NCBI GenBank assembly: GCA_947561715.1
Contig: OX387201.1
Location: 1,382,001 to 1,446,000 of the forward strand
Direction of reading: 5' to 3'
DNA: 64,000 nucleotides
Source: Ascidia mentula
Lineage: Eukaryota; Chordata; Ascidiacea; Phlebobranchia; Ascidiidae
The translations under genes were made by a program, and so were the position numbers. Positions 8,501 through 49,600 of the stretch are shown piece after piece. Within the stretch, counting starts at the first letter, position 1. Every line of letters begins with the position of its first letter. Under the pieces are notes generated by a model. It worked only from the letters and a program-made list of their open reading frames with translations. It made no database searches and was not told the DNA's origin.

Positions 8501-11500
8501 CCTTGAAATGGGAAGTGTGCCAAGTTCAACCTTGCGCTACAACAGCAACATCGACAAGAACAATGCCTACAACTACTACAACAAGACCTACAACAACAAC
8601 CACTACAACAAGACCTACAACAACAACCACTACAACAAGACCTACAACAACAACAACTACAACAAGACCTACAACAACAACCACCACAACAAGACCTACA
8701 ACAACAACCACTACAACAAGATCTACAACAACAACCACATTGACAACTACATCCACGACAACAACAGCAACGGAACGTCCGACAACCACAACTCCTTCCA
8801 TTACAATAACAGCAAGAACAACAACACAACGGACAACAGAAACCTCCCCACCAGTACATGTCGACGTGATCAAATCACGCAAGTCGTATGACGCAACGAA
8901 CACTGTGGTTCGTGGAAGCGCAGAGGAAGGAGAAAGAAGATCTAACGGAAGATGGATATCTGGGACGTGGTCACATGTAAGTTTGGGATTTTTAAACATT
9001 TCTGTTTGTGTGGTTGGAACAATATTGTCGTTTCTTGTCGGCATGGTAGGTTCTTGAAACCTGAATGTAACCATGGCCTCGTAAACAAAAGATAAAAATA
9101 CAATCAAGAAGATTTAAATTGCTCACAAATAATTGTGTTGTCTTGAAATCCTGGTGTGATACAGAACACCCTAAATATTAATAAACCTCACACGGTTTTA
9201 TGTCGACAGTGTTCGTCAACGTGTGGCGGAGGTACAAGGAAGAGGGTCGTGGTGTGCCAATCGTTGTCAAACAACGCTACATGCGGAGACAGGGAAAAAC
9301 CCCTCAGCATCGAACCTTGCGAATCTGATCCCTGTCCAAGATGGAAGGTCGCTTCCTGGTCAAAGGTGAGCAATGACGTCATGACTCATGACGTAAAACA
9401 GTACGTCATTCCGGTGTTAAAGTTCATTGAGTCGATTTTAATTCTCCAATAACAATCTGTTGATTGTGACGTCACAGTGTTCTCGCTCTTGCAACGGCGG
9501 ACAGAGGAGCCGATTGGTTTTCTGCGTCATGGCTGACAATCGACACACGTACAACCACCGTTGTGACGTCATGATGAAACCTCTCGACTTGAATGTTTGC
9601 AACCAGAGATCGTGTCCAAACCACCACAGGTGGCGCAAGGGAGCTTGGGGCGCGGTACGAAAATTTGACTACGAAGTTTATGAGTCATCGTTTTTATATT
9701 GACGTGGTGGAGTGACGTAGGCAGTAGTGACGTAATTCGGGGTTAGGCTTCACCTTCGCGTGGTGAAAACCGAAAGGTTAAGGGTTCGAATCCCAGTGGT
9801 CGTTGGTTGGTAAATTGTTCACAATTTTTCTCAACTTCTTTAAACCAGCACGCTCAGTCGAAAGCACACGTGAAATATGCCATCTTTAGATTTGCACACT
9901 TATATTTTATTATCGGAACAAAACTATATGCTGTGATTTCATACAATATGATGTTCGGTGTTTTGTGCGTTTATGTTTCGTTGTGTTACATTCCATGTTT
10001 TTACTCACAATATTTATCGTACTTGAAACTTAATATAATTGTATCATAGAAACAACTACAAATGTATAGTTTGCTTATCACCACCTGGATATCTCTTGAC
10101 GCTACATGGACAGATTAAATTCTTTACCCTCTTTCAGTCGTGAACAATCATCGCAAAACCCCATAGACTTGTTGCTACCGCAAAATTTATTTGCGAAAAC
10201 TCACTGGGCAAAATACTCGCGAAAACAAATTTATAATTCTAGAAAACGAAAATGACCGCAATTGAAAATTATTTATTCTGTATGCCATTGTTTTATTACT
10301 CAACAAACATCAATGTTACGTCACAGTGCTCTGTAACGTGCGGACGAGGAGCGAAAAGAAGGCAAGTCGACTGTGTGGGTCCGGATGGAAGAGTAGTTCC
10401 AGACGCACAGTGCGCCTCCTTGCGGCGAGGAAAACCGCGCGAAGTTCGTCGATGCGTGAAGCAACGAAGGTGTCCGCGGTGGAAGGTCTCACGGTGGAGC
10501 AAGGTGAAACATTTAACCTTGAAACATGAGAAATCGTTGTACAATGTGATACGCTTTATTTTTCGCCTTTCGAAATCGTACAATAATTCGACAATGTTCC
10601 CATTATTTCGTAACAATCGAAACGCTTGTTCTTTGCAGTGTTCTTCGAGCTGTGGCGAAGGCGTCCAACGTCGACGTGTAAAATGTCGATACAAACGGAA
10701 GGTCGTCAACACAATGCTTTGTGGCGTCACAAGCAAGCCAGATCTCGTCATGAGGTGCAACGTCACTGATTGTCCGTCGTTCGAGTGGACGTTTGAGGAC
10801 TGGAGTCAGGTGGGATATTAAGTGTAGTTATTGTTTTTTAACATAAAAATATTTTAAACAGGATTGCTCTTTTGACATTAATTAACGTTTTGGGACAATC
10901 TTTGGATGTTGTTTGTTATTCGAATTTAGTAAATCTGTCTCTGTTCCCTGACAATTTATCACAATGTGTAAAAAGTTTTATTATCAAAGAATCATTCATG
11001 CAAACACAAATCCTTCCATTTGAGCAAATTATCATCGACACTATAAAGTTGATTAACAATTCTAAACCTGCAAATAAACAGTGGCCATCTGTCTGCAGCT
11101 TACACAATTCATATTATTGGCTCCACTTTGCTTATCTGCAAATAATTATTTTGTTATGATAGGGTTTGCAAAATAAACGACTAATATATGCATTATATTC
11201 CTCAAAGTTCAAAGGTTATTATGGTCAAGTTCAATCTCAATATTAAAAAAATATTTAAGTGTTCGAAATCTTGCGGGGAAGGAATTACGACTCGAAGGAT
11301 CACGTGCCGAAGAACTCCAGACATGCGATTGGTCGATCCGAGGTATTGTGACCCCGCTCAGAAGCCAGATCAACCAATCACAAGACGAGAATGCAACAGA
11401 GGGCCATGCACAGCCCGATGGAATGTCAGCCCCTGGTCAGAGGTGGGAAAGAAATCAACGATTCCTACTCATTTGGATTGAATAAATATACCAGCAATTT

Positions 11501-16398: not shown

Positions 16399-19300
16399 CT
16401 AATCGGCCAGACCACAGAGCAGTGCGGATCCTCTGGATATCCAGAAGTCCGGATGTTGTTGGGTTGGGAGATGCACGGACACCACAAAGTTGGTGGAATG
16501 TCCTGAAAAAAAAACGCATAAAGTTGAATGCTAATAATTATCCAAAGAAAGCTGGTTTATGTTGGTAATTAGCAATCTAGTTCACTGATAATTGAGCTAT
16601 GATTGTCCAAAGAAAATCTATTTATGGTTCCTGAATAGATTTTACACAACAACAAATTTGCAACCACCCGATTTGAAAATTAGGACCTTCAAGTTTCTCA
16701 GTTTCGCACTAAACTTTTCTGCTCCACATTTTCGGAGGGAATACGTTGAGCCATTATGTTTTTATGGACATTTATTGGTAAACTAGATTTCTGGGGAATA
16801 TTATTAGTACATTTGAAGTTTGCATTACCCCAAAACAATTAAATTGTTTCTTATCTGCCAAATTTTTCGATCTTAAGACAACGGGAACCAACCTGTGGTG
16901 GAGAGAACCCCTGCTCTTGCTCCTGTCTTGTAGAGAGGACACTGGTAATCCTCAACCGGAGAAGCGAAATCCATCTTCGGTTCCATGTGGAGGAGCGGCA
17001 TCCTCTCATTCATCACTCGATCCCTCTCTGACGTCATCAACATCGTCTCCGTATCGAAGCGGAACGCATCAGTGAAGAGTCCGTGAACCACCACGCCATC
17101 CGTGATTTCCGGGAGCTGGAAATAAGATAAATATCATGAGGACAATGTTAACTGTCCCAAAGCTTGTTTGCAATAAAAAAAGTGATTCAGCCAGTGGTCA
17201 CCCAACGGTCAATTAATATTCCATAAACGTTTTATCATCAACCTCTTTATCAGCTTCCGGTTCCTCTCCAAAAGCAACTTGTTGAAGTTCTTCATGATAT
17301 TCTCCCTGATCTCGGAAGATGGAAAGAGGATGGAAATGGAAACTGAGGCGATCAATCGGATAATCGTAAGTTCTTGCGTGGTTTTGAAGCGCACCGGTTA
17401 AGAAACCTGCAAAAACATACAGGATCCTTTTTATCGGATTTTGGCAAAAACAAAAATAGGCATAATTTGGCATATTTGATCGGATTTTTTCAGATTTAAA
17501 CCGGTCAGAACCGGTTTGGGTGGCTACTGGAACCTCCAAACCGGTTTAATCCAGTTTTTGAAACGCAAAACTTTTGGCCGATTTCCGGAAAAACACCAAG
17601 ACTATAGCCTTTCCTTTTTATCGGATTTTGGCAAAAACAAAAATAGGCATAATTTGGCCTATTTGATCGGATTTTTTCAGATTTAAACCGGTCAGAACCG
17701 GTTTGGGTGGCTACTGGAACCTCCAAACCGGTTTAATCCAGTTTTTGAAACGCAAAACTTTGGGCCGATTTCCGGAAAAACACCAAGACTAGCCTTTCCT
17801 TTTTATCGGATTTTGGCAAAAACAAAAATAGGCATAATTTGGCATATTTGATCGGATTTTTTCAGATTTAATCCGGTCAGAACCGGTTTGGGTGGCTACT
17901 GGAACCTCCAAACCGGTTTAATCCAGTTTTTGAAACGCAAAACTTTTGGCCGATTTCCGGAAAAACACCAAGACTATAGCCTTTCCTTTTTATCGGATTT
18001 TGGCAAAAACAAAAATAGGCATAATTTGGCATATTTGATCGGATTTTTTCAGATTTAAACCGGTCAGAACCGGTTTGGGTGGCTACTGGAACCTCCAAAC
18101 CGGTCTAATCCAGTTTTTGAAACAAAAAACTTTGGGCCGATTTCCGGAAAAACACCAAGACTATAGCCTTTCCTTTTTATCGGATTTTGGCAAAAACAAA
18201 AATAGGCATAATTTGGCATATTTGATCGGATTTTTTCAGATTTAAACCGGTCAGAACCGGTTTGGGTGGCTACTGGAACCTCCAAACCGGTTTAATCCAG
18301 TTTTTGAAACGCAAAACTTTTGGCCGATTTCCGGAATAACACCAAGACTGTAGCCTTTCCTTTTTATCGGATTTTGGCAAAAACAAAAATAGGCATAATT
18401 TGGCATATTTGATCGGATTTTTTCAGATTTAAACCGGTCAGAACCGGTTTGGGTGGCTACTGGAACCTCCAAACCGGTTTAATCCAGTTTTTGAAACGCA
18501 AAACTTTTGGCCGATTTCCGGAAAAACACCAAGACTATAGCCTTTCCTTTTTATCGGATTTTGGCAAAAACAAAAATAGGCATAATTTGGCGTATTTGAT
18601 CGGACTTTTTTCAGATTTAAACCGGTCAGAACCGGTTTGGGTGGCTACTGGAACCTCCAAACCGGTTTAATCCAGTTTTTGAAACGCAAAACTTTTGGCC
18701 GATTTTCGGAAAAACACCAAGACTATAGCCTTTCCTTTTTATCGGATTTTGGCAAAAACAAAAATAGGCATAATTTGGCATATTTGATCGGATTTTTTCA
18801 GATTTAAACCGGTCAGAACCGGTTTGGGTGGCTACTGGAACCTCCAAACCGGTTTAATCCAGTTTTTGAAACGCAAAACTTTTGGCCGATTTTCGGAAAA
18901 ACACCAAGACTATAGCCTTTCCTTTTTATCGGATTTTGGCAAAAACAAAAATAGGCATAATTTGGCATATTTGATCGGATTTTTTCAGATTTAAACCGGT
19001 CAGAACCGGTTTGGGTGGCTACTGGAACCTCCAAACCGGTTTAATCCAGTTTTTGAAACGCAAAACTTTTGGCCGATTTCCGGAATAACACCAAGACTGT
19101 AGCCTTTCCTTTTTATCGGATTTTGGCAAAAACAAAAATAGGCATAATTTGGCATATTTGATCGGATTTTTTCAGATTTAAACCGGTCAGAACCGGTTTG
19201 GGTGGCTACTGGAACCTCCAAACCGGTTTAATCCAGTTTTTGAAACAAAAAACTTTGGGCCGATTTCCGGAAAAACACCAAGACTATAGCCTTTCCTTTT

Positions 19301-22300
19301 TATCGGATTTTGGCAAAAACAAAAATAGGCATAATTTGGCATATTTGATCGGATTTTTTCAGATTTAAACCGGTCAGAACCGGTTTGGGTGGCTACTGGA
19401 ACCTCCAAACCGGTTTAATCCAGTTTTTGAAACGCAAAACTTTTGGCCGATTTCCGGAAAAACACCAAGACTATAGCCTTTCCTTTTTATCGGATTTTGG
19501 CAAAAACAAAAATAGGCATAATTTGGCATATTTGATCGGATTTTTTCAGATTTAATCCGGTCAGAACCGGTTTGGGTGGCTACTGGAACCTCCAAACCGG
19601 TTTAATCCAGTTTTTGAAACGCAAAACTTTTGGCCGATTTCTGGAAAAACACCAAGACTATAGCCTTTCCTTTTTATCGGATTTTGGCAAAAACAAAAAT
19701 AGGCATAATTTGGCATATTTGATCGGATTTTTTCAGATTTAAACCGGTCAGAACCGGTTTGGGTGGCTACTGGAACCTCCAAACCGGTTTAATCCAGTTT
19801 TTGAAACGCAAAACTTTTGGCCGATTTCCGGAAAAACACCAAGACTATAGCCTTTCCTTTTTATCGGATTTTGGCAAAAACAAAAATAGGCATAATTTGG
19901 CGTATTTGATCGGACTTTTTTCAGATTTAAACCGGTCAGAACCGGTTTGGGTGGCTACTGGAACCTCCAAACCGGTTTAATCCAGTTTTTGAAACGCAAA
20001 ACTTTTGGCCGATTTCCGGAAAAACACCAAGACTATAGCCTTTCCTTTTTATCGGATTTTGGCAAAAACAAAAATAGGCATAATTTGGCATATTTGATCG
20101 GATTTTTCCGATTTAAACCGGTCAGAACCGGTTTGGGTGGCTACTGGAACCTCCAAACCGGTTTAAACCAGTTTTTGAAACGCAAAACTTTGGGCCGATT
20201 TCCGGAGAAACACCAAGACTATAGCCTTTCCTTTTTATCGGATTTTGGCAAAAACAAAAATAGGCATAATTTGGCATATTTGATCGGATTTTTTCAGATT
20301 TAATCCGGTCAGAACCGGTTTGGGTGGATATTGGAACCTCCAAACCGGTTTAATCCAGTTTTTGAAACGCAAAACTTTTGGCCGATTTCCGGAAAAACAC
20401 CAAGACTATAGCCTTTCCTTTTTATCGGATTTTGGCAAAAACAAAAATAGGCATAATTTGGCCTATTTGATCGGATTTTTTCAGATTTAAACCGGTCAGA
20501 ACCGGTTTGGGTGGCTACTGGAACCTCCAAACCGGTTTAATCCAGTTTTTGAAACAAAAAACTTTGGGCCGATTTCCGGAAAAACACCAAGACTATAGCC
20601 TTTCCTTTTTATCGGATTTTGGTAAAAACAAAAATAGGCATAATTTGGCATATTTGATCGGATTTTTTCAGATTTAAACCGGTCAGAACCGGTTTGGGTG
20701 GCTACTGGAACCTCCAAACCGGTTTAATCCAGTTTTTGAAACGCAAAACTTTTGGCCGATTTCCGGAAAAACACCAAGACTATAGCCTTTCCTTTTTATC
20801 GGATTTTGGCAAAAACAAAAATAGGCATAATTTGGCATATTTGATCGGATTTTTTCAGATTTAATCCGGTCAGAACCGGTTTGGGTGGCTACTGGAACCT
20901 CCAAACCGGTTTAATCCAGTTTTTGAAACGCAAAACTTTTGGCCGATTTCCGGAAAAACACCAAGACTATAGCCTTTCCTTTTTATCGGATTTTGGCAAA
21001 AACAAAAATAGGCATAATTTGGCATATTTGATCGGATTTTTTCAGATTTAAACCGGTCAGAACCGGTTTGGGTGGCTACTGGAACCTCCAAACCGGTTTA
21101 ATCCAGTTTTTGAAACGCAAAACTTTTGGCCGATTTCCGGAATAACACCAAGACTATAGCCTTTCCTTTTTATCGGATTTTGGCAAAAACAAAAATAGGC
21201 ATAATTTGGCCTATTTGATCGGATTTTTTCAGATTTAAACCGGTCAGAACCGGTTTGGGTGGCTACTGGAACCTCCAAACCGGTTTAATCCAGTTTTTGA
21301 AACAAAAAACTTTGGGCCGATTTCCGGAAAAACACCAAGACTATAGCCTTTCCTTTTTATCGGATTTTGGCAAAAACAAAAATAGGCATAATTTGGCATA
21401 TTTGATCGGATTTTTTCAGATTTAAACCGGTCAGAACCGGTTTGGGTGGCTACTGGAACCTCCAAACCGGTTTAATCCAGTTTTTGAAACGCAAAACTTT
21501 TGGCCGATTTCCGGAAAAACACCAAGACTATAGCCTTTCCTTTTTATCGGATTTTGGCAAAAACAAAAATAGGCATAATTTGGCATATTTGATCGGATTT
21601 TTTCAGATTTAATCCGGTCAGAACCGGTTTGGGTGGCTACTGGAACCTCCAAACCGGTTTAATCCAGTTTTTGAAACGCAAAACTTTTGGCCGATTTCCG
21701 GAAAAACACCAAGACTATAGCCTTTCCTTTTTATCGGATTTTGGCAAAAACAAAAATAGGCATAATTTGGCATATTTGATCGGATTTTTTCAGATTTAAA
21801 CCGGTCAGAACCGGTTTGGGTGGCTACTGGAACCTCCAAACCGGTTTAATCCAGTTTTTAAAAACGCAAAACTTTTGGCCGATTTCCGGAAAAACACCAA
21901 GACTATAGCCTTTCCTTTTTATCGGATTTTGGCAAAAACAAAAATAGGCATAATTTGGCATATTTGATCGGATTTTTTCAGATTTAAACCGGTCAGAACC
22001 GGTTTGGGTGGCTACTGGAACCTCCAAACCGGTTTAATCCAGTTTTTGAAACGCAAAACTTTTGGCCGATTTCCGGAAAAACACCAAGACTATAGCCTTT
22101 CCTTTTTATCGGATTTTGGCAAAAACAAAAATAGGCATAATTTGGCATATTTGATCGGATTTTTTCAGATTTAATCCGGTCAGAACCGGTTTGGGTGGCT
22201 ACTGGAACCTCCAAACCGGTTTAATCCAGTTTTTGAAACGCAAAACTTTTGGCCGATTTCCGGAAAAACACCAAGACTATAGCCTTTCCTTTTTATCGGA

Positions 22301-25300
22301 TTTTGGCAAAAACAAAAATAGGCATAATTTGGCATATTTGATCGGATTTTTTCAGATTTAATCCGGTCAGAACCGGTTTGGGTGGCTACTGGAACCTCCA
22401 AACCGGTTTAATCCAGTTTTTGAAACGCAAAACTTTTGGCCGATTTCCGGAAAAACACCAAGACTATAGCCTTTCCTTTTTATCGGATTTTGGCAAAAAC
22501 AAAAATAGGCATAATTTGGCATATTTGATCGGATTTTTTCAGATTTAAACCGGTCAGAACCGGTTTGGGTGGCTACTGGAACCTCCAAACCGGTTTAATC
22601 CAGTTTTTAAAAACGCAAAACTTTTGGCCGATTTCCGGAAAAACACCAAGACTATAGCCTTTCCTTTTTATCGGATTTTGGCAAAAACAAAAATAGGCAT
22701 AATTTGGCATATTTGATCGGATTTTTTCAGATTTAAACCGGTCAGAACCGGTTTGGGTGGCTACTGGAACCTCCAAACCGGTTTAATCCAGTTTTTGAAA
22801 CGCAAAACTTTTGGCCGATTTCCGGAAAAACACCAAGACTATAGCCTTTCCTTTTTATCGGATTTTGGCAAAAACAAAAATAGGCATAATTTGGCATATT
22901 TGATCGGATTTTTTCAGATTTAATCCGGTCAGAACCGGTTTGGGTGGCTACTGGAACCTCCAAACCGGTTTAATCCAGTTTTTGAAACGCAAAACTTTTG
23001 GCCGATTTCCGGAAAAACACCAAGACTATTATAGCCTTTCCTTTTTATCGGATTTTGGCAAAAACAAAAATAGGCATAATTTGGCATATTTGATCGGATT
23101 TTTTCAGATTTAAACCGGTCAGAACCGGTTTGGGTGGCTACTGGAACCTCCAAACCGGTTTAATCCAGTTTTTGAAACGCAAAACTTTTGGCCGATTTTC
23201 GGAAAAACACCAAGACTGTAGCCTTTCCTTTTTATCGGATTTTGGCAAAAACAAAAATAGGCATAATTTGGCCTATTTGATCGGATTTTTTCAGATTTAA
23301 ACCGGTCAGAACCGGTTTGGGTGGCTACTGGAACCTCCAAACCGGTTTAATCCAGTTTTTGAAACGCAAAACTTTTGGCCGATTTCCGGAAAAACACCAA
23401 GACTATAGCCTTTCCTTTTTATCGGATTTTGGCAAAAACAAAAATAGGCATAATTTGGCATATTTGATCGGATTTTTTCAGATTTAAACCGGTCAGAACC
23501 GGTTTGGGTGGCTACTGGAACCTCCAAACCGGTTTAAACCAGTTTTTGAAACGCAAAACTTTGGGCCGATTTCCGGAGAAACACCAAGACTATAGCCTTT
23601 CCTTTTTATCGGATTTTGGCAAAAACAAAAATAGGCATAATTTGGCATATTTGATCGGATTTTTTCAGATTTAATCCGGTCAGAACCGGTTTGGGTGGAT
23701 ATTGGAACCTCCAAACCGGTTTAATCCAGTTTTTGAAACGCAAAACTTTTGGCCGATTTCCGGAAAAACACCAAGACTATAGCCTTTCCTTTTTATCGGA
23801 TTTTGGCAAAAACAAAAATAGGCATAATTTGGCCTATTTGATCGGATTTTTTCAGATTTAAACCGGTCAGAACCGGTTTGGGTGGCTACTGGAACCTCCA
23901 AACCGGTTTAATCCAGTTTTTGAAACAAAAAACTTTGGGCCGATTTCCGGAAAAACACCAAGACTATAGCCTTTCCTTTTTATCGGATTTTGGTAAAAAC
24001 AAAAATAGGCATAATTTGGCATATTTGATCGGATTTTTTCAGATTTAAACCGGTCAGAACCGGTTTGGGTGGCTACTGGAACCTCCAAACCGGTTTAATC
24101 CAGTTTTTGAAACGCAAAACTTTTGGCCGATTTCCGGAAAAACACCAAGACTATAGCCTTTCCTTTTTATCGGATTTTGGCAAAAACAAAAATAGGCATA
24201 ATTTGGCATATTTGATCGGATTTTTTCAGATTTAATCCGGTCAGAACCGGTTTGGGTGGCTACTGGAACCTCCAAACCGGTTTAATCCAGTTTTTGAAAC
24301 GCAAAACTTTTGGCCGATTTCCGGAAAAACACCAAGACTATAGCCTTTCCTTTTTATCGGATTTTGGCAAAAACAAAAATAGGCATAATTTGGCATATTT
24401 GATCGGATTTTTTCAGATTTAATCCGGTCAGAACCGGTTTGGGTGGCTACTGGAACCTCCAAACCGGTTTAATCCAGTTTTTGAAACGCAAAACTTTTGG
24501 CCGATTTCCGGAAAAACACCAAGACTATAGCCTTTCCTTTTTATCGGATTTTGGCAAAAACAAAAATAGGCATAATTTGGCATATTTGATCGGATTTTTT
24601 CAGATTTAAACCGGTCAGAACCGGTTTGGGTGGCTACTGGAACCTCCAAACCGGTTTAATCCAGTTTTTGAAACGCAAAACTTTTGGCCGATTTTCGGAA
24701 AAACACCAAGACTATAGCCTTTCCTTTTTATCGGATTTTGGCAAAAACAAAAATAGGCATAATTTGGCATATTTGATCGGATTTTTTCAGATTTAAACCG
24801 GTCAGAACCGGTTTGGGTGGCTACTGGAACCTCCAAACCGGTTTAATCCAGTTTTTGAAACAAAAAACTTTGGGCCGATTTCCGGAAAAACACCAAGACT
24901 ATAGCCTTTCCTTTTTATCGGATTTTGGCAAAAACAAAAATAGGCTTAATTTGGCATATTTGATCGGATTTTTTCAGATTTAAACCGGTCAGAACCGGTT
25001 TGGGTGGCTACTGGAACCTCCAAACCGGTTTAATCCAGTTTTTGAAACGCAAAACTTTTGGCCGATTTCCGGAAAAACACCAAGACTATAGCCTTTCCTT
25101 TTGATCGGATTTTGGCAAAAACAAAAATAGGCATAATTTGGCCTATTTGATCGGATTTTTTCAGATTTAAACCGGTCAGAACCGGTTTGGGTGGCTACTG
25201 GAACCTCCAAACCGGTTTAATCCAGTTTTAGATGAATGTTTGGAGACTAACCTTGCGGGAAGAAAAATCCTGAAATCCAAAAACTTTTTGGGGGTCCCTT

Positions 25301-28300
25301 CTCAACCCAGCGCTGTGTAAAGTGACATCGAAGGACCATATCCTTAACCCAGGATCCCAGTGGCTTTAGTGACGGGAAAGCCGCTGCTTCCCACAGCCCT
25401 GGCACCTAAAACACATTATTTTGTAGGTCAACGCCATTCTGGGTGTCAGAAAAATTTGTTTGTTGTAAACATTCTTTAAATTTCCCACCAATCATAACAA
25501 GACAATACACAAATATTAATTAAGTCGCATGTTCAAATTAATGTAACACAATAAATAGTTCAAAATATTAGCTGAGCTCATTGCATTAAACAATGCGATA
25601 ACATTAAACAAAAAAAAAAACAAAAAAAAACACGCTGCAACATTTTAATGTTTAATTGGGTTTAGCATTAGGGTTATTATCTTGAATCACAACTACAAAA
25701 TGTCGACAAATGTTAATTACTTGGTTGTTCAAAAAGCTCGTGTACATCCTCTCCATCTCTTCGCTCATAACAACAAGTCCAGCTATCGCTTTTTTCAAGG
25801 TTTGCAGCGAGTTTATGATGACTTTTAGAAGCTTCTTAAATCTTTCTACCTCCTGTTGCAACACCGTAGTGAGGGAATTCACCCTGCGAGATATTATCAG
25901 GTTAACTGAAGGAATTCATGTTTTTCATGTTTGTTTGATTGCTTTAAATAAAAAACTTGATAAAAAAATACCATCACAAATTGCGTTTCCAAATAAATGT
26001 ACATGACGATTTTTTATAGTGAGCTGCACACAGAACCATTGCTTCGACCCAATATGTCTCATCAGTGCAGCCTAAAACCCACTAAACGAACCTTCCCTTG
26101 GCGTCGAGTTTGAACATTGATTGTTCAGCCGAGTCCATGTCCAGTTTAAAGATGTTCACCTTCTCCAGGATGCTCTGAGCGAGCTCCTGGACGATCTCGT
26201 CACTAGTTTTCCCTCCTCCTGCGGATGAAAGACGAGGTTGCACTTCCAGAATCGTTGTAACGAGATTCAAAGTCTCTTGTCGCTGGAACAAGAAGAAATT
26301 TATTGAAACGAAGAAGAAAGAAAAAAAAAGATAAACAAATATTACATCTAATCACTCGTCTTCTAGTCTCACATGTACATATGTATGCATATTTTAACTT
26401 CTGGAGATTTTGCAGCTTTTGTATCACATTTTTTAATGTACCCTACACTTATTTCAAGATTGTATGCAAATTAATACCGTTCTCACGCACTTAGAGTAAG
26501 GGGTTCATTAGCAGACATGAAATCGGCGCAAAAATGTCTGTCGCCTCAAGCCAGAAAACACCGATATGGCACAAAAATTTTTGTATTCTTTTGTGCATTT
26601 TTAATGTGTGGCCACATTTTCATATTCTCCCTCTTATCCAACAACCATATGTTTTTACGTAATATAATGATGTATTTTTACCTGGAAAGCGAGGTTGGCG
26701 TTGTCGTGCATTCCGAACACCTCGGGGTCGTCGTTGATCGGAAGTTTGTTGACGTAATCCAGATATTCCTGCATCTTGTCGAAGCTCGGGGCAAAGTAGA
26801 CTCCGGACTCCGAGAACTTGTATTCCGGATCGAGAGTGTCCTCACGGAAAAATCTATTTCAAAACAAAACGTTGATTTAGATCACAAGAATGGCAATTGT
26901 TTCGATTATTTCCAGGTCAAAAACTGTCGACTTTCTTACTGGAAACAAATATATTGCGCTTTAAAAACATCATCAATGTTTTATTGAAATATATTCTGTA
27001 AAAGATTTCCATGATTGTGGTATAATGTATAACAGGTGGAAATCATTAAGCAATTGCAACAGAATGGGGAAATAAATTCCAAATTTAGTTTGTTTTGCAA
27101 AAAAAATCCAGAACCTTTGTCCTTGTCCTTGGGTTTGTCGTTACATGGATCAAAACACAGACTAGAGAACGGACTCTTGGCTGAGCGCGGCGTTTGAAAG
27201 ATCAATCGACTATTTGCTAAAACCCTCACCGAGAAAGGATTGTCCTGAGGCATCTCTGGTCGATCGCATCCGTTACTCTTCCACCGTACGTGATTTCTCC
27301 TGTGATGTAGATGAGGGCGTCCCATGGGATCCTCTCATCCAGGCAGAAGAGCTCGAGGTTGAGAAGACCACACTCCCTGTCGCTGTCAGTGAACTCGTAC
27401 CGGATGTTCCAACCAAGAGGACCAAACTTCTTCCTCTCCTGGAGGAAAAGATGAGGATAAGTTGAAGTTTTTGGAGTTTGGGAATTCTTTCAAATTATTT
27501 CGAGATTGTTTTTTGTGCCGCAAATTCATATTGTTGTAACAAAATAAACAATTGAAATTATTATCTAACTATTAAAACATGCATAGCAGCATCAGTAATA
27601 ATTTATCTAACTGTATTGCATTGAACAATGTAGTGGCGAAGCGAACAATCCTGCGACATTTTAATGTTTAAACAGGATTCAGATCTCAAAAGTAGAAACT
27701 GTTGTTCGGGTCAGTTGTACTTTTGGTAACCTTGGCTGTGTGTTAAGAATTACTTTAAATTTGGTTTTTCTACGTACCCTAACTCTAACCAAACTACGTA
27801 CAATAAAAGTACTGACGTAACAAACATCAAATAGGAAAAATTTCTGACTGGGTTGTAACTTGGGTGCGCATTATTCACGGCTTTCCTAAATTGGTTATTG
27901 TGACTCCCAATGTTTATTGGATTTAATAACATTTTCAGCGATGTTCTGCAAGTTATTGATTTAAAATTTAAAAGATCAAACTTGGAACCGTTCTAAATCA
28001 ATATTGTCTGTGTAACCATGGAAATAAATATAAAACCCAGTAGGTCACGGTTCGAAGGAAAAAAGACAATTTATTGGCGGGCACCACAAACGGGAAAAAG
28101 TTGGCCGGCCATTAGAACCTATTTTTAAGCAAATCGTGGTCGTGAGTTCGAATCTCTATTTTTTTCGTCGCTGGCTTGCCAGCGATAATTCTTATTTTAA
28201 ATGTTGCTAATGTGGGAACTTTGTTAGAACTGTGCGACAGTTTCTATGACGCTACACATGCATAAATGTGACACAATAACCTTTGTAGCGCGCAAATGCT

Positions 28301-31300
28301 TAGGCAGTAACAATTTGGTCGAAAGAGTTTTGAATTCTACAGAACTTTTCCTACCACATAAGTCACACTGCCAATATTTTGTAATAGATTTACCTTCTGT
28401 GTACATTTTCACCGTTGCAAATTACTGCAACTATACCTTCAATATTGGCAGTAACCCCTATGTTTGTCTGTTGCCTATTTCACCTGAATAGCGGCGTGGA
28501 AGAAGCAGATTCCGAATATCATTCTTCTCCAATTAACGCCCAACGCGTTGTCCTCGAAGAAAGTGGTGGTGATCGACGCAAACGCTCCCCTAATGTTGGA
28601 GCGAAGACCTTTGGGAGGTTCGTTGGTTACCTAGCAACCAAATACAGGTTCAAATATCACCGTGAAATCGGGAAAATGTCCGGAAAATCCTGTCACATAA
28701 TTTTGCTTAGAACTGGTTCGTTTCAAAACGCGTTATATGCTTCTTGTAGATTTTAATTCCAAAATTTGCAATAAGGTATATCCCAGAAAACGGAAGAAGT
28801 CACATCTCACACAAACTTTACGGGTCAAGGTGGCATGGAGGTTAAGGTTGTGTTAAGCCTTATTTCAGCCTAATCCCGGCGCAATATACCTGTCCTAACA
28901 CATTTCCACAATTGTGCTACTGTGGTAAGTGTATCGAAACGGCTCTATTAGGGTTTTTGCAGGTGGGGTCGGCAGGGATTCGAACCCACAACTTTCGTAT
29001 CAACTCACCTTCACCGATCCCTGTAGAAGTGTAACAGGAAAGAAGTTGGTCGGCATCGAGCTGAGATAAAGGCGGAAATCTTCATGAACCGCCTCGGCCG
29101 GAAGTTCCTTGAATCTGTAAGGTACAACAGGTAATTAATTACAGGTTTACGCATTTTTACGAAAGATACTTTTACACCGGGTCACAAAGTTTTTTCCAAA
29201 CTTGATCCACATATAAGCCTATGTAACATAGAAATCTGTGAGAATATTAACGCTACGATTTCGTGTAGTATTTCAAGTTAAATTTATAAATGAAAATAAC
29301 AGCTGGTTGCCCTGTTTACACCTAACCATTAAAATTCGCACAGATTTCTGTTTTACACAGACTTATATGTGGATCAAGTTTGAAAAAAACTTTGTGACCC
29401 GGTGTAGTAGTATCTTCCTATTTTTACATTGTTAACTTCCAATAATAGAATTTCTTTTCAAATCAATTATAGCAATCTGTTTTATTATAATAATAATAAT
29501 AGATCCGTAAAAAGTGTGTGAGCCTTTTAAGCAAATTTATCAGTTGACGAAGTACTTACTCTTTATATATTTCCTCGAGCCTCGGCATGAAGGATTTTGC
29601 CAAGTGACAATTCTGCAGGAAAACCCAACCCCCAGTCTCACGTGCCGTGTTGATCATCTTCTCGGCGATCGGACCCTGACCTGTTACGTCATAAAAACAA
29701 ACATGACGTCACCAAGTGACTTTATAAACGTAATATATAAATCGGATGTCAATCGATGAAAATGCAGGTTTACTGATCTGTGTGGATTAGGAAAATTTTA
29801 ACAAACCAAAGTTCCATTCAAAAACAATACTGAGCATAGATTGTTAACAGGTAACTCTTTAGGAAAAAGATTCAACTTTGACATCACGTTAAGTTGCAAT
29901 TAAGCGGAACTGAACAAGGAAAGTCGAAAAACGACATCTATTATCGTATGTGTGGAGATAAACCACAAAAGACAACCTGGCAAATAAAAAATCAAACTAA
30001 AAGCACTTGTTGAACAGGACCAACCTCGCAACATAAAATTTGAATTTCTCCTGTTCAGCAAATGCTTTATGCGTGTACTATTAAGTAATTTTAACCCATG
30101 TTCAACTTCAACCACAGAAATCAAGTTTAAATCGAACCTTGTCCGAGCGAAATCGCCTGCAGTTTATCAACGTATTCCCGTTCCTTGGCAAAACGCATGA
30201 ACGCCCCCATGGGGTCAGATCCCGTGCTGAGAACGAACACTAGAGGCGTTAAACTCGTCATGTCGGCGTACAGTGACGTCAGAGTGATGGGAGGATTCTC
30301 CACGAATGCTTTGCCGCTGTTCGCTACAACGAAGTCAGTGGTCGTGGACACGACCTGTAACAAAAATGATGCCGCATGAGCTCTCTGTGTTTTGTTAAAA
30401 AAAAACAGGTCTTTGTTTCCTAATGGGTGTAATCACCGGATATGACGTAGTCAGCGGCGTTGTATACGTCATGCAGTTGTTTTCGAAATACTTTTACTAT
30501 GAGTAACCTTTCACAACATTGGCTTAAAAAAAATTTTGAATTGACAGCATTGTATGGCTGTGAACAATTCATTGCTCAAGGTGCGGAAGTGTGATTCAGA
30601 GTAAACTGCATTAAACTAACCAAGGTGATCTGGTAGAACGTCGGTCGTGCACCTTATTTCTGCTGCTTCATTGTTAGTATATCATAGTGTGAAGTTCACT
30701 GTGTTTTTATCAACAAACATTTCAAACCTTTTCCTCCTTAAAAGTCTTCACCAAGATGAGTTTCTGGAACATGGTGAGTTTTTCCTCCCAGTGTCCGATG
30801 TTGTCATCCTCCTTCTCCCCCTCCTCCGGAGTTGGAGGACGAACGTACTCTGGTGGTTCGGGATTCTGGAAAAACGAAAAATCCTTTAAAACCACGTTCA
30901 TTGTATTTCGTGGCTGCTTTGAGAGATTCCTTGGGCTTGTCTACTGATGGAATTACATATATGGGGAAATCGCAAAACGCCTCCACGTACTTTGCGTCAA
31001 ACCATCTTTCCTTGTTTGAATATCAGAGAATTTGCACCGACAATACCAAAAACATCATTGCATTCAGAAAAGATACTGATTATTCTTACAAAACCGTAAG
31101 CGAAAATTGATATTTCTTCATAAATCAACTGACATCAATCAGAGACTAACAGCTTTATTGAACTATTACATCCATTTGTTCCACTCACAGCTTACAACAA
31201 ACCAGTACCTTCTCACAAAGTATTTCAGTTCTACCCGTAGAAGCAACATTTGTATCCTACACCCAACTACATATGACAGTTCAACGAATTCGATTCCACA

Positions 31301-40600: not shown

Positions 40601-43600
40601 GCCACCACCAGGGGGCGCGCAAGCGGCAGCAATCGTGACGTCTTTGATAATCTGCAAATGTACATTGGATTGGATTGGTGACCAAGTAGAATAGCAAGCG
40701 CAAAATCCTACAGAGACAATGTACTTGTAAAAAAACATCACGCCCAGGGTGTATAATGTGGAGCAAGCTAGGGCTCGATACGGTCGTTTCAAAAAATGCC
40801 TCCAATTTCTGGGTGAGTTGAAGCTTGCAAAACATTTGTGTATATCAGCTTGCTTATCAGCAAACCGTCAACTACATTTGTCATCCAAAACTAAGCAATA
40901 TACAGTATTGCAGAGTTCGTCCAATCGCAGGGCAGTAACCAGCACACATCTGTTTATCCATAATTATCTTCCACATTTAAAAGCAGATTCAACCGACCTT
41001 CCAAAACAACTTCTCCCTGTCGTAAAGTCCTCCAAAGTCCTGATATTGTCTCAACAATTCAATCGGAGGCTGACTTCCGTATCTGTCCAACTTGGGCATG
41101 TTCAAATCGTCGACGAACACAATCACCCGCTTGCCCGAGGGAGCCCCTGTTACGAGAAAGCAGAATCTTTTGACGTCGGTGGATTTTGGTTAAATTATAA
41201 AACAAATTATAAATAATCATTGAGCTTTAATTTTAAAACCATGTATTTGGTCAACATTGGCTACATTTCGATACTGACCGATAATATTTTTGCGTTTTCT
41301 CTCCAACTTGGCTTCGAGGAACTCCTGGGTTCGAATTGATGACGTTTGAGCCGAGAAGTTCATGTAGACTGTGACGTAATTGCGAGCGTCCGATATCGAT
41401 TCGAACATGCCACGTGCCACGACCGATTTTCCGACACCAGTGCCACCTGCCACAACAACCACATGTCAAACACTGGATTAATGACACAAAGTCGTGACAA
41501 ATCTTCACATAATCTGGGGATAAGTAAAATGACATATTCAGCATAAAAACATTTTTTTAAAAAACAAGATTTTTCACTTACTTTTCGTATAAATGCAACG
41601 CAGCATGCAAATCTAAACCGACTGCAAAATTATCCATGTAAAAAAATACGTAACTAACGCATTTTGCCTTGCAGTTGCTGTCCTAAACTATTTTAATAAC
41701 CTACGGTGCGGATGTCTTTAGAATAACAAATACTTGGATTTTGCGTGTTAGTCACCAGAATATCACGAAAACCCGACTGAGCTCCTGTAACTCAGGCGGT
41801 AGAGCGTTGGGCTTGGTAAGCCCAGGGTCGCGAGTTCAAACCTCACCGGGAGCTTAATTTTTTTCCGATATCGCTCTAATTTGTCGGGTAAAAGTGACTG
41901 ATCCTGCTAAGCTGCAATGCCTGTAAACCTATAAATACCAGTGTATAGGACGGATTTGTTGATCTCCAGAAGTTTGTCCATCAGATATCCGTATCTCACT
42001 GTGTCTATAGTCGGCACCAGCATATCGAAGAAGGGCATCTCAGTGTTGTATTTGAAAGCCGGCACAATCCTCTCCCATAAATCGAAGCGTTTCGTTTCGA
42101 AATCAAGATAATAACTGAACAGGTCGGCACTGGCTGGAAGCTGGAAAAAATGAAAGACATTAAATGTGTTTTACGATATTTGCGTGTCGTTGCAACAGAA
42201 AAAAGGCATTAGGATATGGCCATTTGCAATATTTTCCGAAAATATAAAAATGTAATAACAAATATTTTTGAACATTAAATTAAGAAAATACCTTTTTTTG
42301 GTCAGTAATCAGTGTATGTCATGGAATGGTTTGTTCATTAAAAGGTTTCTTTTACACAACCTGCATTTAACCACCAATTCCTCACCTTAATTTCTGGATT
42401 GTCCTCCATCTGTGACCGAACAAACGAATCGAATTGATCGATGCAGTTCTCTGTGACGTTTCCAGCCACAGCCCACACGTAAGAGAAGATGAAAGCGTTC
42501 GCCACCAACTGATGAAGTCGGATCGGATCCTGGAAGCAAGGTTTATATGTGAGCAAATTGAGCAAATTTTATATAAGCTGCAAACAGGGCCTATTTCATA
42601 TCAGTGCAGCTTAGTGACTGGCGACATTATTACCCGCAACAGTTTATATCTTTATTCAATTGTAGTCACAACAAATGATGACGTCAGTGGTTGCCAGCTT
42701 GCGATTGTAGGTAATTTGCGATTGTTGAAACGCAACGTTGATCACAAAGGAGAAGAAACCGGATTATGTTTCACCTGTTTAAGATCCGGACCCCCATTAC
42801 CGAGTAGAAGAGATTGAAGGAGTGCACACAGACATGACACCTTGCTCATTCCAACTTGGGGCATTGCTTGTGTCAAGTTCTTCTCCACGTATCTGCGCAT
42901 CAATGTTAATGATATGGTAGTAGTAAAAAGAGTATGTTGAATTCGTCTTTTAAACCGCATTTTAAAATCAACAGAACTGCTACCCTCCTATACAATAATT
43001 TTACAGCTGTGTACATAATGTAACGAGCTGATTTATTAGGAATATGTTAATGAAGGACCGTATGTATTTCAGCAATGTTAAAAGTGCTGACAAGGGTGAT
43101 TTTCAAACTTAAGGCTTTATAAATTCAGTTGAAATCCAAACAAAACAGAAAGCAGTCGCCAACCTTATCCCGTCTTCAATGTAAGCGTCGAAAAGATCCA
43201 GGATAAACTTTCTCGTTTCATCCTTGATTTTTGCCGACATTTGTTGTTTGAGCCACGTGGTAACATACGGCCTCCAACCCAGTTCGTTCGGATCAATGTA
43301 AACCATCCCACATCTCGATACTGTGGCAGGAGAAGCAACGGCCAAATCCTGTAATGTGAAGGTAAGTTTTCAAAGTCAATGCGTTGGAATTTGAAAGTGT
43401 CGATAATTGTTGTCAATAATAAGAATAATCACAACCAATAATAACGATAATTTCAGCTTTCGATGGAATTAAATTATTCATTTTTTTAGTGGAGAAAAGT
43501 TGCAGTCAAATTGTTGGAGTTGGAAACTGCCAATAAGCCAATTTATTATAAAATAATAAAGTTTGTTTGTGATAAGTAGTTTCTTTTGCCAGAAGAGCTT

Positions 43601-46600: not shown

Positions 46601-49600
46601 CTGCTTTCGCGTTCCTGATTGTCAGAAGTTGCTGAGCGATGACAGAAAGCACCTCGATGTCGATACGGTTGAACTCGTCGAAACAACACCAAGCTCCTGA
46701 TTGGGCGAGACCGCTGCACGTGATCAAAAGAAGAGGACCAGTGATTTGGACGAAATACAGACAAAACAAAATTCAAAAAATATGGAAAAGTGCCAACATA
46801 AAAGCGGAAAATTGGGATTTATGATATTCTGGGTGAATTTAAAATGAATTTGCCCATCATACTAAAAGAAAATGCCAACAATATTGAAAAAAGTACATTA
46901 AAATAATATATATTTGGGACAGAAAAGGATAAAATTTCGTTTTTCGCTTCAGTACCTGAAAAATCTTCCCATAATCTTAAAGTCAAGTCCTTCAGAACAG
47001 TTGAATACGACACATTGTTTAGCGAGAGCCTTCGCAAGATCCTTGGTCGTTTCGGTTTTTCCAGTTCCCGCTGGTCCAGCTGGAGCACCACCAAGGTCAA
47101 GCTGTAGAGGTCACCAAAAAATTAACATCCCACTGACAATTTTCGTCTGTCACTTCATTTGAGAACTTTTGGACATTTGAAAAGTAACATTTTCTCTGTC
47201 TTCTAAAACCTAATTCGCCAACTATGAATCAGCGGTTTTCACTCACACTATACAACGCACTGATTGCTGTTTCAAGACAAGCATTTAAGAAAATTGACAT
47301 CAAATATGTAATACAATCGGTCTCCCCAGTCGTAAAAACTCGCACCTGTAGCGCCCCCATGAGGCAAAGGTAGCACCTATCAGTGAGAGGAGTGATGACG
47401 AGTCTGGGACAAGCTCCAAGGTATTCGTATCCGTATATGTATTGTGAACCTGCACACCGCACTGCACAGTCATCTATATCTGATTCCCAGTAATAACGGA
47501 GTTGTCTCAGCCACTCGAAATTGGTCGGGCTGTCAACGTTCATCCTGACCTGTTAAGTTATAGATGGAAAATTAGGGTGATTGTTATGAGTCTTCTTACA
47601 CACATGTAAATTAGGGTCTTCGAATAAACCGATGGTGCATTTTATCACCAGTGATGTTTTTGTTTGAGTCCGGAATGTAAAAAATACGTAACATCAGAAG
47701 AAAAATTACGTAATAACACAACTTGATTTCGATTGAAGGTTAAATTGTGTTCATTGAAAGTAAGTTACAACGCACTATAATCCCAATGTTACGAGTATTT
47801 ATGAACAAAACCAAAAGAAAGAAAAAATTGAAAAATTAATGTTATGAACATGATGGCAAATTATTGTCGTCATCAACTTATACCATATCGGTGATGATGT
47901 CACGAGCGTGGACGTCAACAGTGATGAGAGCTGTGATGTTGTTACGGTGCAGTTGGGGAATTTTCGTCCGGACCAGTGCAGCGAGTCGGTTGAGTCTGTC
48001 GAAATTAACTTTCTCGAAGCTTTTCAAACCTTCCTCTGGTCCACCTTCCACCTCGCCCGATAATATCTGGCTCACCTCTTGACACCACATGGTTTGGGAG
48101 ATCGTCAACACAACCTGGTATCAAGGACGGTTCTGTTTACTTCGCATCATTTCGGTCAACTACTGGGTTTTCTACTTTGGGCTCTGGGGTGGTTGACAAC
48201 CACGTGATAGGGTAATGATCACGTGATAGGGTAATGGCCACGTGGTAGGGTAATGATCACGTGGTAGGGTAATGGCCACGTGGTAGGGTAATGGTCACGA
48301 GGGTAACAGTGGTGTATCTTAAACAGGTCACATATTCATGTGGGCTAATATACATTTATATGGATTGTGATTGGACAATGTCAGCCTCAGCTTTATTATT
48401 ACTATTTTATTATTATTAGTAGTTGCTGGTGCACTATTTTGTACAGACTGATTACTTATTGGCGCGAGTTTTCGCGAGCCTATATCCTTACTTCATCCAA
48501 AAGAAACAATACATATAAGTAGGTGTGTCGTCGATACACCTACATTGGTGTTGGAAACAAAACCGCATTTCACCACATTTTACTAAATCTCAATGGATTT
48601 TCAAGTCCTTCATTTCATTTGGGAAGATATTTTTATCGTGATGACGTACCTGCGACGGATGAGCGGTACTCCATTCCTCTCGGGATTTTTGTTGAAAGTC
48701 GGTGATGGCAAACTTGGACATTTTCCTCAGGTTAACGACCATGGCCTCCTCCACTTTACCCAACCAGTCCTCCACGTTACCACGGGCTGTTTAAGGAATG
48801 GTTTCAGTTAAATTCCTGTTTTTGAAAATGTTTGAGACACTTTTCCTACAAATCAAGTGTTGTCCATATCTCTATTGTTGATGTTATAAAATGCCGAAAA
48901 CGTAGAAACTTAAAATTAAATTGTCACAAATGGACACCAATTAAATAGTTGTCATCCGCATCACATGTAGGCAATATAAAGTAGGCAAATACTGCGATAC
49001 TGAAGATGAACGGGTGGGCAAAGTTCTATGGCCACACAAACGAAGACCTTGCGGTACGACAAACGAATTTTATACATTAGCTGTTGAAACATCTGTAATC
49101 AAGTCTTTCTCGGACATAAAGCTAACACGAGTTCCTCTACGCATAAACATCCATCTGTCCGCATAATGTCATTTGTTCTGTAGCCATTTTGAGTTACGGG
49201 ATATAACGCCCGAATTATTCTGATATGTACCAGCAAAACAGCACCACCCCACTGTCCTCCATGTAACTCCCAAAAAATTTAAATTCCATCAGGACAACGG
49301 AAGCCGAAAAAAACAATATTGTAAGTTATACAAAATAGTTCAAATGGTGAAGGTATTTCAATAGACAAAAGCCATCGACACGCATCACCTTTCAATCCCT
49401 TTCCAAGACTAACATTCTCTCCTTCAGGTGAAATCATGGCAATGATGTCGTTCGTTATTTGTACTTCTTGTTTCTCGCCACTAGGAGTCGCCTTTCCGTC
49501 CCCGCTCACAGCGACCGTCCCGAATTCGAGGAGGGCAATCGCATCGAAACATTTGCGGAGATGAGGTTGAACGGCCTGGGTAGGAAGAAGTTGGTGTCGT

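What the first reader, a model, noticed from the sequence alone, without database searches (positions are those of the whole stretch)
17424..25229. A satellite array makes up nearly all of one dynein intron
About 42 copies of a 187-bp unit occupy 7.8 kb between the exons that encode [10 protein letters not shown] and GFLTGALQN. Only 18 bases on the acceptor side and 22 on the donor side are left outside the array. Other introns of the gene are mostly a few hundred bases. An essential ciliary motor therefore has to be transcribed and spliced through a near-homogeneous satellite whose unit is close to a nucleosome repeat length.
Basis: seen in the sequence. Interest (0 to 1): 0.75.

Follow-up and report, generated by a model that had tools for sequence, protein, structure and literature searches.

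The report
Satellite array fills a dynein intron
In what is probably a sea squirt, one intron of a gene for a cilium motor protein consists almost wholly of 42 copies of a 187-base repeat, which belongs to a family of repeats scattered near the ends of a few chromosomes and is most likely passive DNA that is cut out on splicing.

Summary
TRF finds 41.7 copies of a 187-bp unit at 17425-25229, inside a GT-AG, phase-1 intron at 17407-25251 (7845 bp). Only 18 and 22 bases lie outside the array. The exons join into a protein that aligns gap-free across the junction to axonemal dynein heavy chain 6 (DNAH6). The 76 modelled introns upstream have median 297 bp, maximum 1045.

The array is not a one-off. 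I located 13 arrays of the family (lists were capped), all 0.6-4.0 Mb from an end of four contigs. The 12 analysed are homogenised internally (mean 93.5-99.5% identity); outside DNAH6 they are 81-94% alike. DNAH6 is the outlier (65-71%), yet its unit aligns to the others without an indel.

Most likely: a euchromatic satellite entered this intron long ago, was amplified and homogenised in place, displaced the rest, and is spliced out passively. Transcription and splicing were not tested. Satellites in introns, including axonemal dynein introns, are known. New here: the family, its near-complete takeover of one intron, and a fixed unit length with partial support.

The parts
17407..25251 (-). 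Intron of the DNAH6 gene, GTTAGT...TTGCAG, phase 1, 7845 bp
   Evidence: boundaries; joined protein aligns through the junction without a gap
17425..25229 (.). Tandem array, 187-bp unit, 41.7 copies, 98% alike
17407..17424 (-). 18 bases outside the array on the acceptor side (end in TTTTTGCAG)
25230..25251 (-). 22 bases outside the array on the donor side (begin with GTTAGT)
25252..25405 (-). Upstream exon ([10 protein letters not shown]...[10 protein letters not shown])
17243..17406 (-). Downstream exon ([17 protein letters not shown]...)
16901..17115 (-). Part of the next exon ([14 protein letters not shown]...), as far as it was modelled
20110..21051 (.). 942-bp block with an exact second copy 3371 bp (18 units) further on, inside the array: recent block duplication
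   Evidence: shared variant pattern of units 15-19 and 33-37

Best explanation
The array is one member of a dispersed euchromatic satellite family of a genome that is probably Ascidia mentula. Shown: at least 13 arrays with a 187-bp period lie 0.6-4.0 Mb from an end of four contigs of chromosome size; the 12 analysed are each homogenised internally. Inferred: a piece of the satellite entered this DNAH6 intron long ago; unequal exchange or conversion between units, including block duplications of several units, amplified and homogenised it in place; the unique intron sequence was lost except for the ends that carry the splice sites. Inferred too: the array is transcribed with the gene and removed by ordinary splicing, the last unit probably supplying the branch point because only 18 bases separate it from the exon. 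It works as passive filler: the splice ends and intron removal are constrained, the copy number is not.
For: Array, intron and gene. Family: (876 core sites with at most 1 mismatch in the genome, 0 in the reversed control). Internal homogeneity against divergence between arrays. Block duplications. No copy elsewhere in the window above chance (hits shown at E 0.82). Some other arrays lie close to genes: D about 3.4 kb past a dynein C-terminal exon, with a Kelch frame between and a sugar-transporter exon about 2.5 kb beyond (nearby dynein exon best to DNAH1); H between a HECT exon (0.9 kb) and a tyrosine-phosphatase exon (2.2 kb), the two on opposite, converging strands; C about 1 kb past a villin-headpiece exon.
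Against: No RNA evidence was available. The DNAH6 array is the most diverged member (65-71%), so it could be a founder rather than a colonist; one genome cannot polarise this. Eight of eight other dynein loci found read through the site without an intron, so an origin of the intron together with the satellite is not excluded. The lack of indels between array consensus units hints that unit length may not be wholly neutral.
Confidence: 0.75

Rival explanations
1. Source, not sink: the satellite was born by tandem amplification of this intron's own interior, and copies later seeded the other arrays.
For: The DNAH6 unit is the outlier of the family (65-71% against 81-94% among the rest). An intron with a single unit would be 227 bp, well inside the gene's range (26 of 76 modelled introns are 227 bp or less), which would explain why no other intron sequence is left.
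Against: The copy number is not a whole number (41.7): amplifying a unique 187-bp stretch gives whole units plus microhomology, unless an edge was later deleted (inference). Faster decay in one array also makes an outlier; against the majority of the other arrays it has 27 changes from G/C to A/T and 10 the other way.
Confidence: 0.12
2. Satellite-made intron: a satellite piece inserted into the coding sequence and supplied the splice sites, so that the intron itself is new.
For: Eight of eight other dynein loci found in the genome read through the site without an intron. By eye the flanks can be aligned to the unit with gaps.
Against: The flank match is not significant: 28 of 76 other introns score as well at the 5' end and 19 of 76 at the 3' end; 39% and 24% of 1000 random pieces of intron interior do too. 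Paralogues as old as these say little about the age of the intron.
Confidence: 0.06
3. The array has a function in the gene, such as a phased-nucleosome or timing element for transcription of DNAH6.
For: Consensus unit length is 187 bp in 11 of 12 arrays; no indel against 180 substitutions between 11 arrays, while indels occur inside arrays (27 indel types to 190 substitution types).
Against: The contrast fades if only non-homopolymer indels seen in at least 2 units are counted (2 to 113, p = 0.15; for DNAH6 alone p = 1). The property is shared with arrays that look intergenic, so it is no feature of DNAH6. The DNAH6 unit has drifted about 30% in sequence.
Confidence: 0.05
4. Assembly artefact.
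For: Arrays are where assemblers err; no reads were available here.
Against: Longest exact internal repeat 942 bp; 22 distinct sequences among 42 pieces; no N; HiFi assembly with 74-fold coverage and QV 64.9 if the match to Ascidia mentula is right.
Confidence: 0.02

Closest known systems
Drosophila Y-linked axonemal dynein genes with satellite-filled gigantic introns, kl-3 and kl-5 (PMC6508621, passages read)
   Same: Axonemal dynein heavy chain gene with satellite DNA in an intron, expected to be transcribed through
   Different: There: megabases, simple satellites such as (AATAT)n, Y chromosome, testis programme with RNA-binding proteins. Here: 7.8 kb, a 187-bp complex unit, one intron; no expression or sex-linkage data
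[quoted passage not shown]
   Same: Complex satellite dispersed near and within genes; 29 of 68 elements lie in introns
   Different: There: tandem arrays up to tetramers, no stronger homogenisation within arrays or chromosomes, all chromosomes. Here: arrays of about 0.5-20 kb, strongly homogenised by array, located on four contigs
1.688 satellite of Drosophila (PMC7642928, listing and start of abstract only)
   Same: A satellite family with copies outside heterochromatin (recalled)
   Different: Unrelated organism; no sequence comparison made here

Membership tests
Satellite DNA | Head-to-tail units, homogenised within an array | tested here: met
   41.7 copies, mean pairwise identity 98.2%
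Satellite DNA | Several arrays of one family in the genome | tested here: met
   13 arrays located on four contigs; 876 core sites
Satellite DNA | Heterochromatic or centromeric location | tested here: inconclusive
   Arrays lie 0.6-4.0 Mb from a contig end and some close to genes; no chromatin data; three contigs begin with 5000 N (L020, L026, L028), so what lies beyond is unseen
Drosophila-type satellite intron gigantism | Satellite in an intron of an axonemal dynein heavy chain gene | tested here: met
Drosophila-type satellite intron gigantism | Megabase introns of simple satellite | tested here: not met
   7845 bp, 187-bp unit
Drosophila-type satellite intron gigantism | Y-linked, spermatocyte-specific expression programme | not testable with these tools
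   No expression or sex-linkage data
Introner / intron-generating element | Splice sites supplied by the element | tested here: not met
   Flank-to-unit match no better than for 28 of 76 (5') and 19 of 76 (3') other introns; low power with 22 and 18 bases
Introner / intron-generating element | Many introns made of the same element | tested here: inconclusive
   Of 12 other arrays, C, D and H look intergenic; the other 9 were not resolved
Transposon-borne tandem repeat (Helitron or inverted-repeat element) | Constant termini and target-site duplication | tested here: not met
   By eye: no common end in the 8 arrays compared, some with degenerate edge units, and no duplication at the DNAH6 ends

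The most novel reading that the evidence does not exclude
In this satellite family selection or a copying bias keeps the unit's length (187 bp) while its sequence is free to drift: 180 substitutions but no indel separate the consensus units of 11 arrays, including one inside a gene. The family would be a length-coded chromatin element, and the DNAH6 intron a natural place to test whether a strictly phased array of 42 units changes elongation and splicing.
Probability: 0.1. Interest if true: 0.6.

Novelty: new member of a known kind. Interest (0 to 1): 0.32.

Why it matters
It shows an intron of a conserved gene taken over almost to the splice sites by a satellite: 40 bases outside the array suffice as unique intron sequence, if splicing is normal. 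The family, with many homogenised arrays of one unit length, some of them close to genes, is a good setting to separate selection on unit length from selection on sequence. The phenomenon itself, satellite in an intron, is known.

Tried and rejected
Splice sites derived from the satellite: rejected for lack of significance, with low power. CpG decay through gene-body methylation as the cause of the lower G+C of the DNAH6 unit (39% against 45-48%): not supported; 10 of 30 CpG positions changed against 22 of 60 other C/G positions. Cryptic splice or polyadenylation signals (5 of 12 units looked at): the DNAH6 sense unit has no AATAAA, one ATTAAA, no GTAAG or GTGAG; too few signals for a test. 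RNA structure: z from +0.2 to -4.9 over 12 consensus units on both strands; 11 of 12 have z of -1.7 or below on at least one strand, so the unit is more foldable than shuffles, with no consistent strand preference; not pursued. Known RNA family in the array: none at gathering threshold; the only Rfam hit in the window is a tRNA at 41781-41854. Shared transposon ends: not seen; three of eight left ends lie within about 8 bp of one unit position by eye, not tested. Nearness of two arrays to dynein genes was noticed after the fact and not tested.

Rows dropped before counts: units outside 180-194 bp, so larger indels are not counted; the C70 array (2 units). For arrays B, E, G and H only one fetched part of the array was used.

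Literature: one search found the Drosophila dynein work. Searches showed nothing on this family in the listings (14 of 14, 20 of 117, 20 of 948, 2 of 2, 0, and 15 of 32 papers listed). One search served to find sea-squirt genome papers. Only open PubMed Central papers were searched.
Full report
What is there. TRF reports one array at 17425-25229 with period 187, 41.7 copies and 98% matches. Cutting at an anchor gives 41 full units and one piece of 134 bp; 34 of the 41 are exactly 187 bp long, and the 42 pieces comprise 22 distinct sequences. Cut at another anchor the mean pairwise identity of the 41 units is 98.2%. Variants are shared by distant units in blocks: units 15-19 and 33-37 carry the same pattern, and the longest exact internal repeat is 942 bp at a distance of 18 units. 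This is what unequal exchange or block duplication leaves, and it also makes the assembly through the array easy for long reads.

The gene. The array lies in an intron of a minus-strand gene. The intron runs from 25251 to 17407 (7845 bp), starts GTTAGT, ends TTGCAG and is in phase 1. Only 22 bases on the donor side and 18 on the acceptor side are not array. The protein made by joining the exons matches axonemal dynein heavy chain 6 best, without a gap at the junction in the two alignments shown (E 3.5e-40). 618 aa of joined C-terminal exons align over residues 2-617 with DNAH6 chains (best E 4.5e-266), against 9.3e-184 for the next chain (8glv_Fm, deposited without a dynein name) and 1.1e-154 for DNAH7. 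An ab initio model trained on the gene's own exons gave 78 exons; after correction by hand next to the array I counted 76 introns upstream of the array intron with median 297 bp, maximum 1045 and minimum 46. Single junctions of that model may be wrong.

The genome. The window lies in G000 at C69:1382001-1446000; G000 has 195,842,439 bases in 79 contigs. Contig lengths of 22,343,712, 21,170,000, 19,661,885 and 15,447,500 lie close to chromosomes 5, 6, 8 and 9 of Ascidia mentula (22.35, 21.17, 19.66 and 15.45 Mb; PMC11109543, part 1 of 3 of the text read). The match is not exact: the paper gives 21,171,019 and 15,452,589 for two of them, and 196,975,169 bp in 95 scaffolds in all. The identification is strong but inferred; family searches meant to confirm it did not complete. 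That assembly is HiFi with 74-fold coverage.

The family. A search with the unit found arrays elsewhere. The 19-base core AACCTSCAAACCGGTTTAA occurs 876 times with at most one mismatch (161 forward, 715 reverse) and 0 times in the reversed control. Only the first 100 or so places were listed, exact ones in contig order from C69; so C1-C68 and C71 seem to have no exact core, while most of C72 and everything after it were not visible in that list. A later list (100 of 114 places) shows C72 and C73 only. With the located arrays come to 13: two on C69 (one of them in DNAH6), a short one on C70, five on C72 and five on C73. They lie 0.57 to 4.0 Mb from a contig end; a single core at C72:8680 lies nearer the end but in no 187-bp array found by TRF. 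More arrays may exist. I analysed 12 of the 13 by consensus, four of them (B, E, G, H) from one fetched part; for the array at C73:11437-11455 kb only flanking stretches were read. Consensus length is 187 bp in 11 of 12; the C70 array has two complete units only, of 185 and 187 bp. Mean identity inside arrays is 93.5-99.5%. Between arrays other than DNAH6 it is 81-94%; DNAH6 against the others 65-71%. Nothing of the family lies elsewhere in the window above chance.

Length against sequence. The DNAH6 consensus differs from the majority of the others at 55 positions without an internal gap. Over 11 arrays, each compared with the majority of the others, there are 180 substitutions and no indel. 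Inside the same 11 arrays I counted 27 indel types and 190 substitution types. Fisher p = 4e-8 for this contrast, 1e-4 if only variants in at least two units count (10 to 113), and 0.15 if indels next to homopolymers are dropped as well (2 to 113). With DNAH6 alone as the fixed class the three values are 0.002, 0.03 and 1. The arrays share ancestry, so the 180 are not independent. I treat length constancy as a lead, not a result. The likeness to a nucleosome repeat length is numerical only.

Neighbourhood of other arrays. I sent 20 of 399 open frames of at least 60 aa from the flanks to Pfam, chosen by coding score and by hand. Array D lies about 3.4 kb past a dynein C-terminal exon; a nearby exon, taken to be of the same gene, matches DNAH1 best (E 4.1e-33); a Kelch-repeat frame lies between and a sugar-transporter exon beyond. 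Array H lies between a HECT-domain exon and a tyrosine-phosphatase exon on converging strands; array C about 1 kb past a villin-headpiece exon. These three look intergenic. Whether the other nine lie in introns was not resolved, so I cannot say how unusual the intronic position is within the family.

Origin. Eight of eight other dynein loci found in the genome match without interruption or stop through the residue where the DNAH6 intron lies, the weakest at E 8.7e-4, so this intron position is not shared by these paralogues. If the satellite had supplied the splice sites, the 22 and 18 flanking bases should resemble the unit. They do so no better than the ends of 28 of 76 and 19 of 76 other introns. 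So I reject a satellite-made intron on present evidence, with low power. Colonisation of an existing intron followed by amplification and loss of the remaining unique sequence is the simplest account; the reverse direction is possible, because the DNAH6 unit is the outlier and a one-unit intron would be of ordinary size. A copy number that is not a whole number speaks mildly for colonisation.

How it works. Shown: an open reading frame that continues from one side to the other, canonical splice sites, array between them. Inferred: transcription with the gene, branch point in or next to the last unit, ordinary splicing. No test of expression was possible.

Known or new. Satellite-filled introns in axonemal dynein genes are known from the Drosophila Y chromosome (PMC6508621, passages), and satellite elements in introns from Tribolium (29 of 68 elements, PMC3411249, passages). 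I saw no paper on this family in the listings of seven searches of open papers, three of which listed only part of their hits. It is a new family of a known kind.

Noticed in passing
window 29163-29416: Inverted repeat with 88-nt arms, 90% complementary, 78 nt between them, in another DNAH6 intron; looks like a small non-autonomous inverted-repeat transposon.
   Followed up: partly
window 41780-41855, + strand: tRNA-Thr gene (anticodon GGT) within the DNAH6 gene span, opposite strand; its first bases overlap a doubtful short exon of my model at 41756-41784.
   Followed up: no
window 8569-8738: 27-bp tandem repeat, 6.3 copies, inside an open frame with a thrombospondin type 1 domain, coding for a threonine-rich stretch.
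   Followed up: no
window 48200-48299: 19-bp tandem repeat, 5.2 copies, within a modelled DNAH6 intron.
   Followed up: no
L014 (C72:2217000-2226900) and L033: A second array of the family lies about 3.4 kb past the end of another axonemal dynein gene, best match DNAH1. Two of 13 arrays in or near dynein genes; may be chance.
   Followed up: partly
L020, L026, L028, L029, L030: Contigs C72, C69 and C73 begin with 5000 N, while C69 and C72 end in TTAGGG telomere repeats.
   Followed up: no
G000, whole genome: Strong strand imbalance of the core motif: 161 forward, 715 reverse matches.
   Followed up: no
C72:8680 (L020): A single exact copy of the core motif near the start of the contig, with no 187-bp array around it by TRF.
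   Followed up: no
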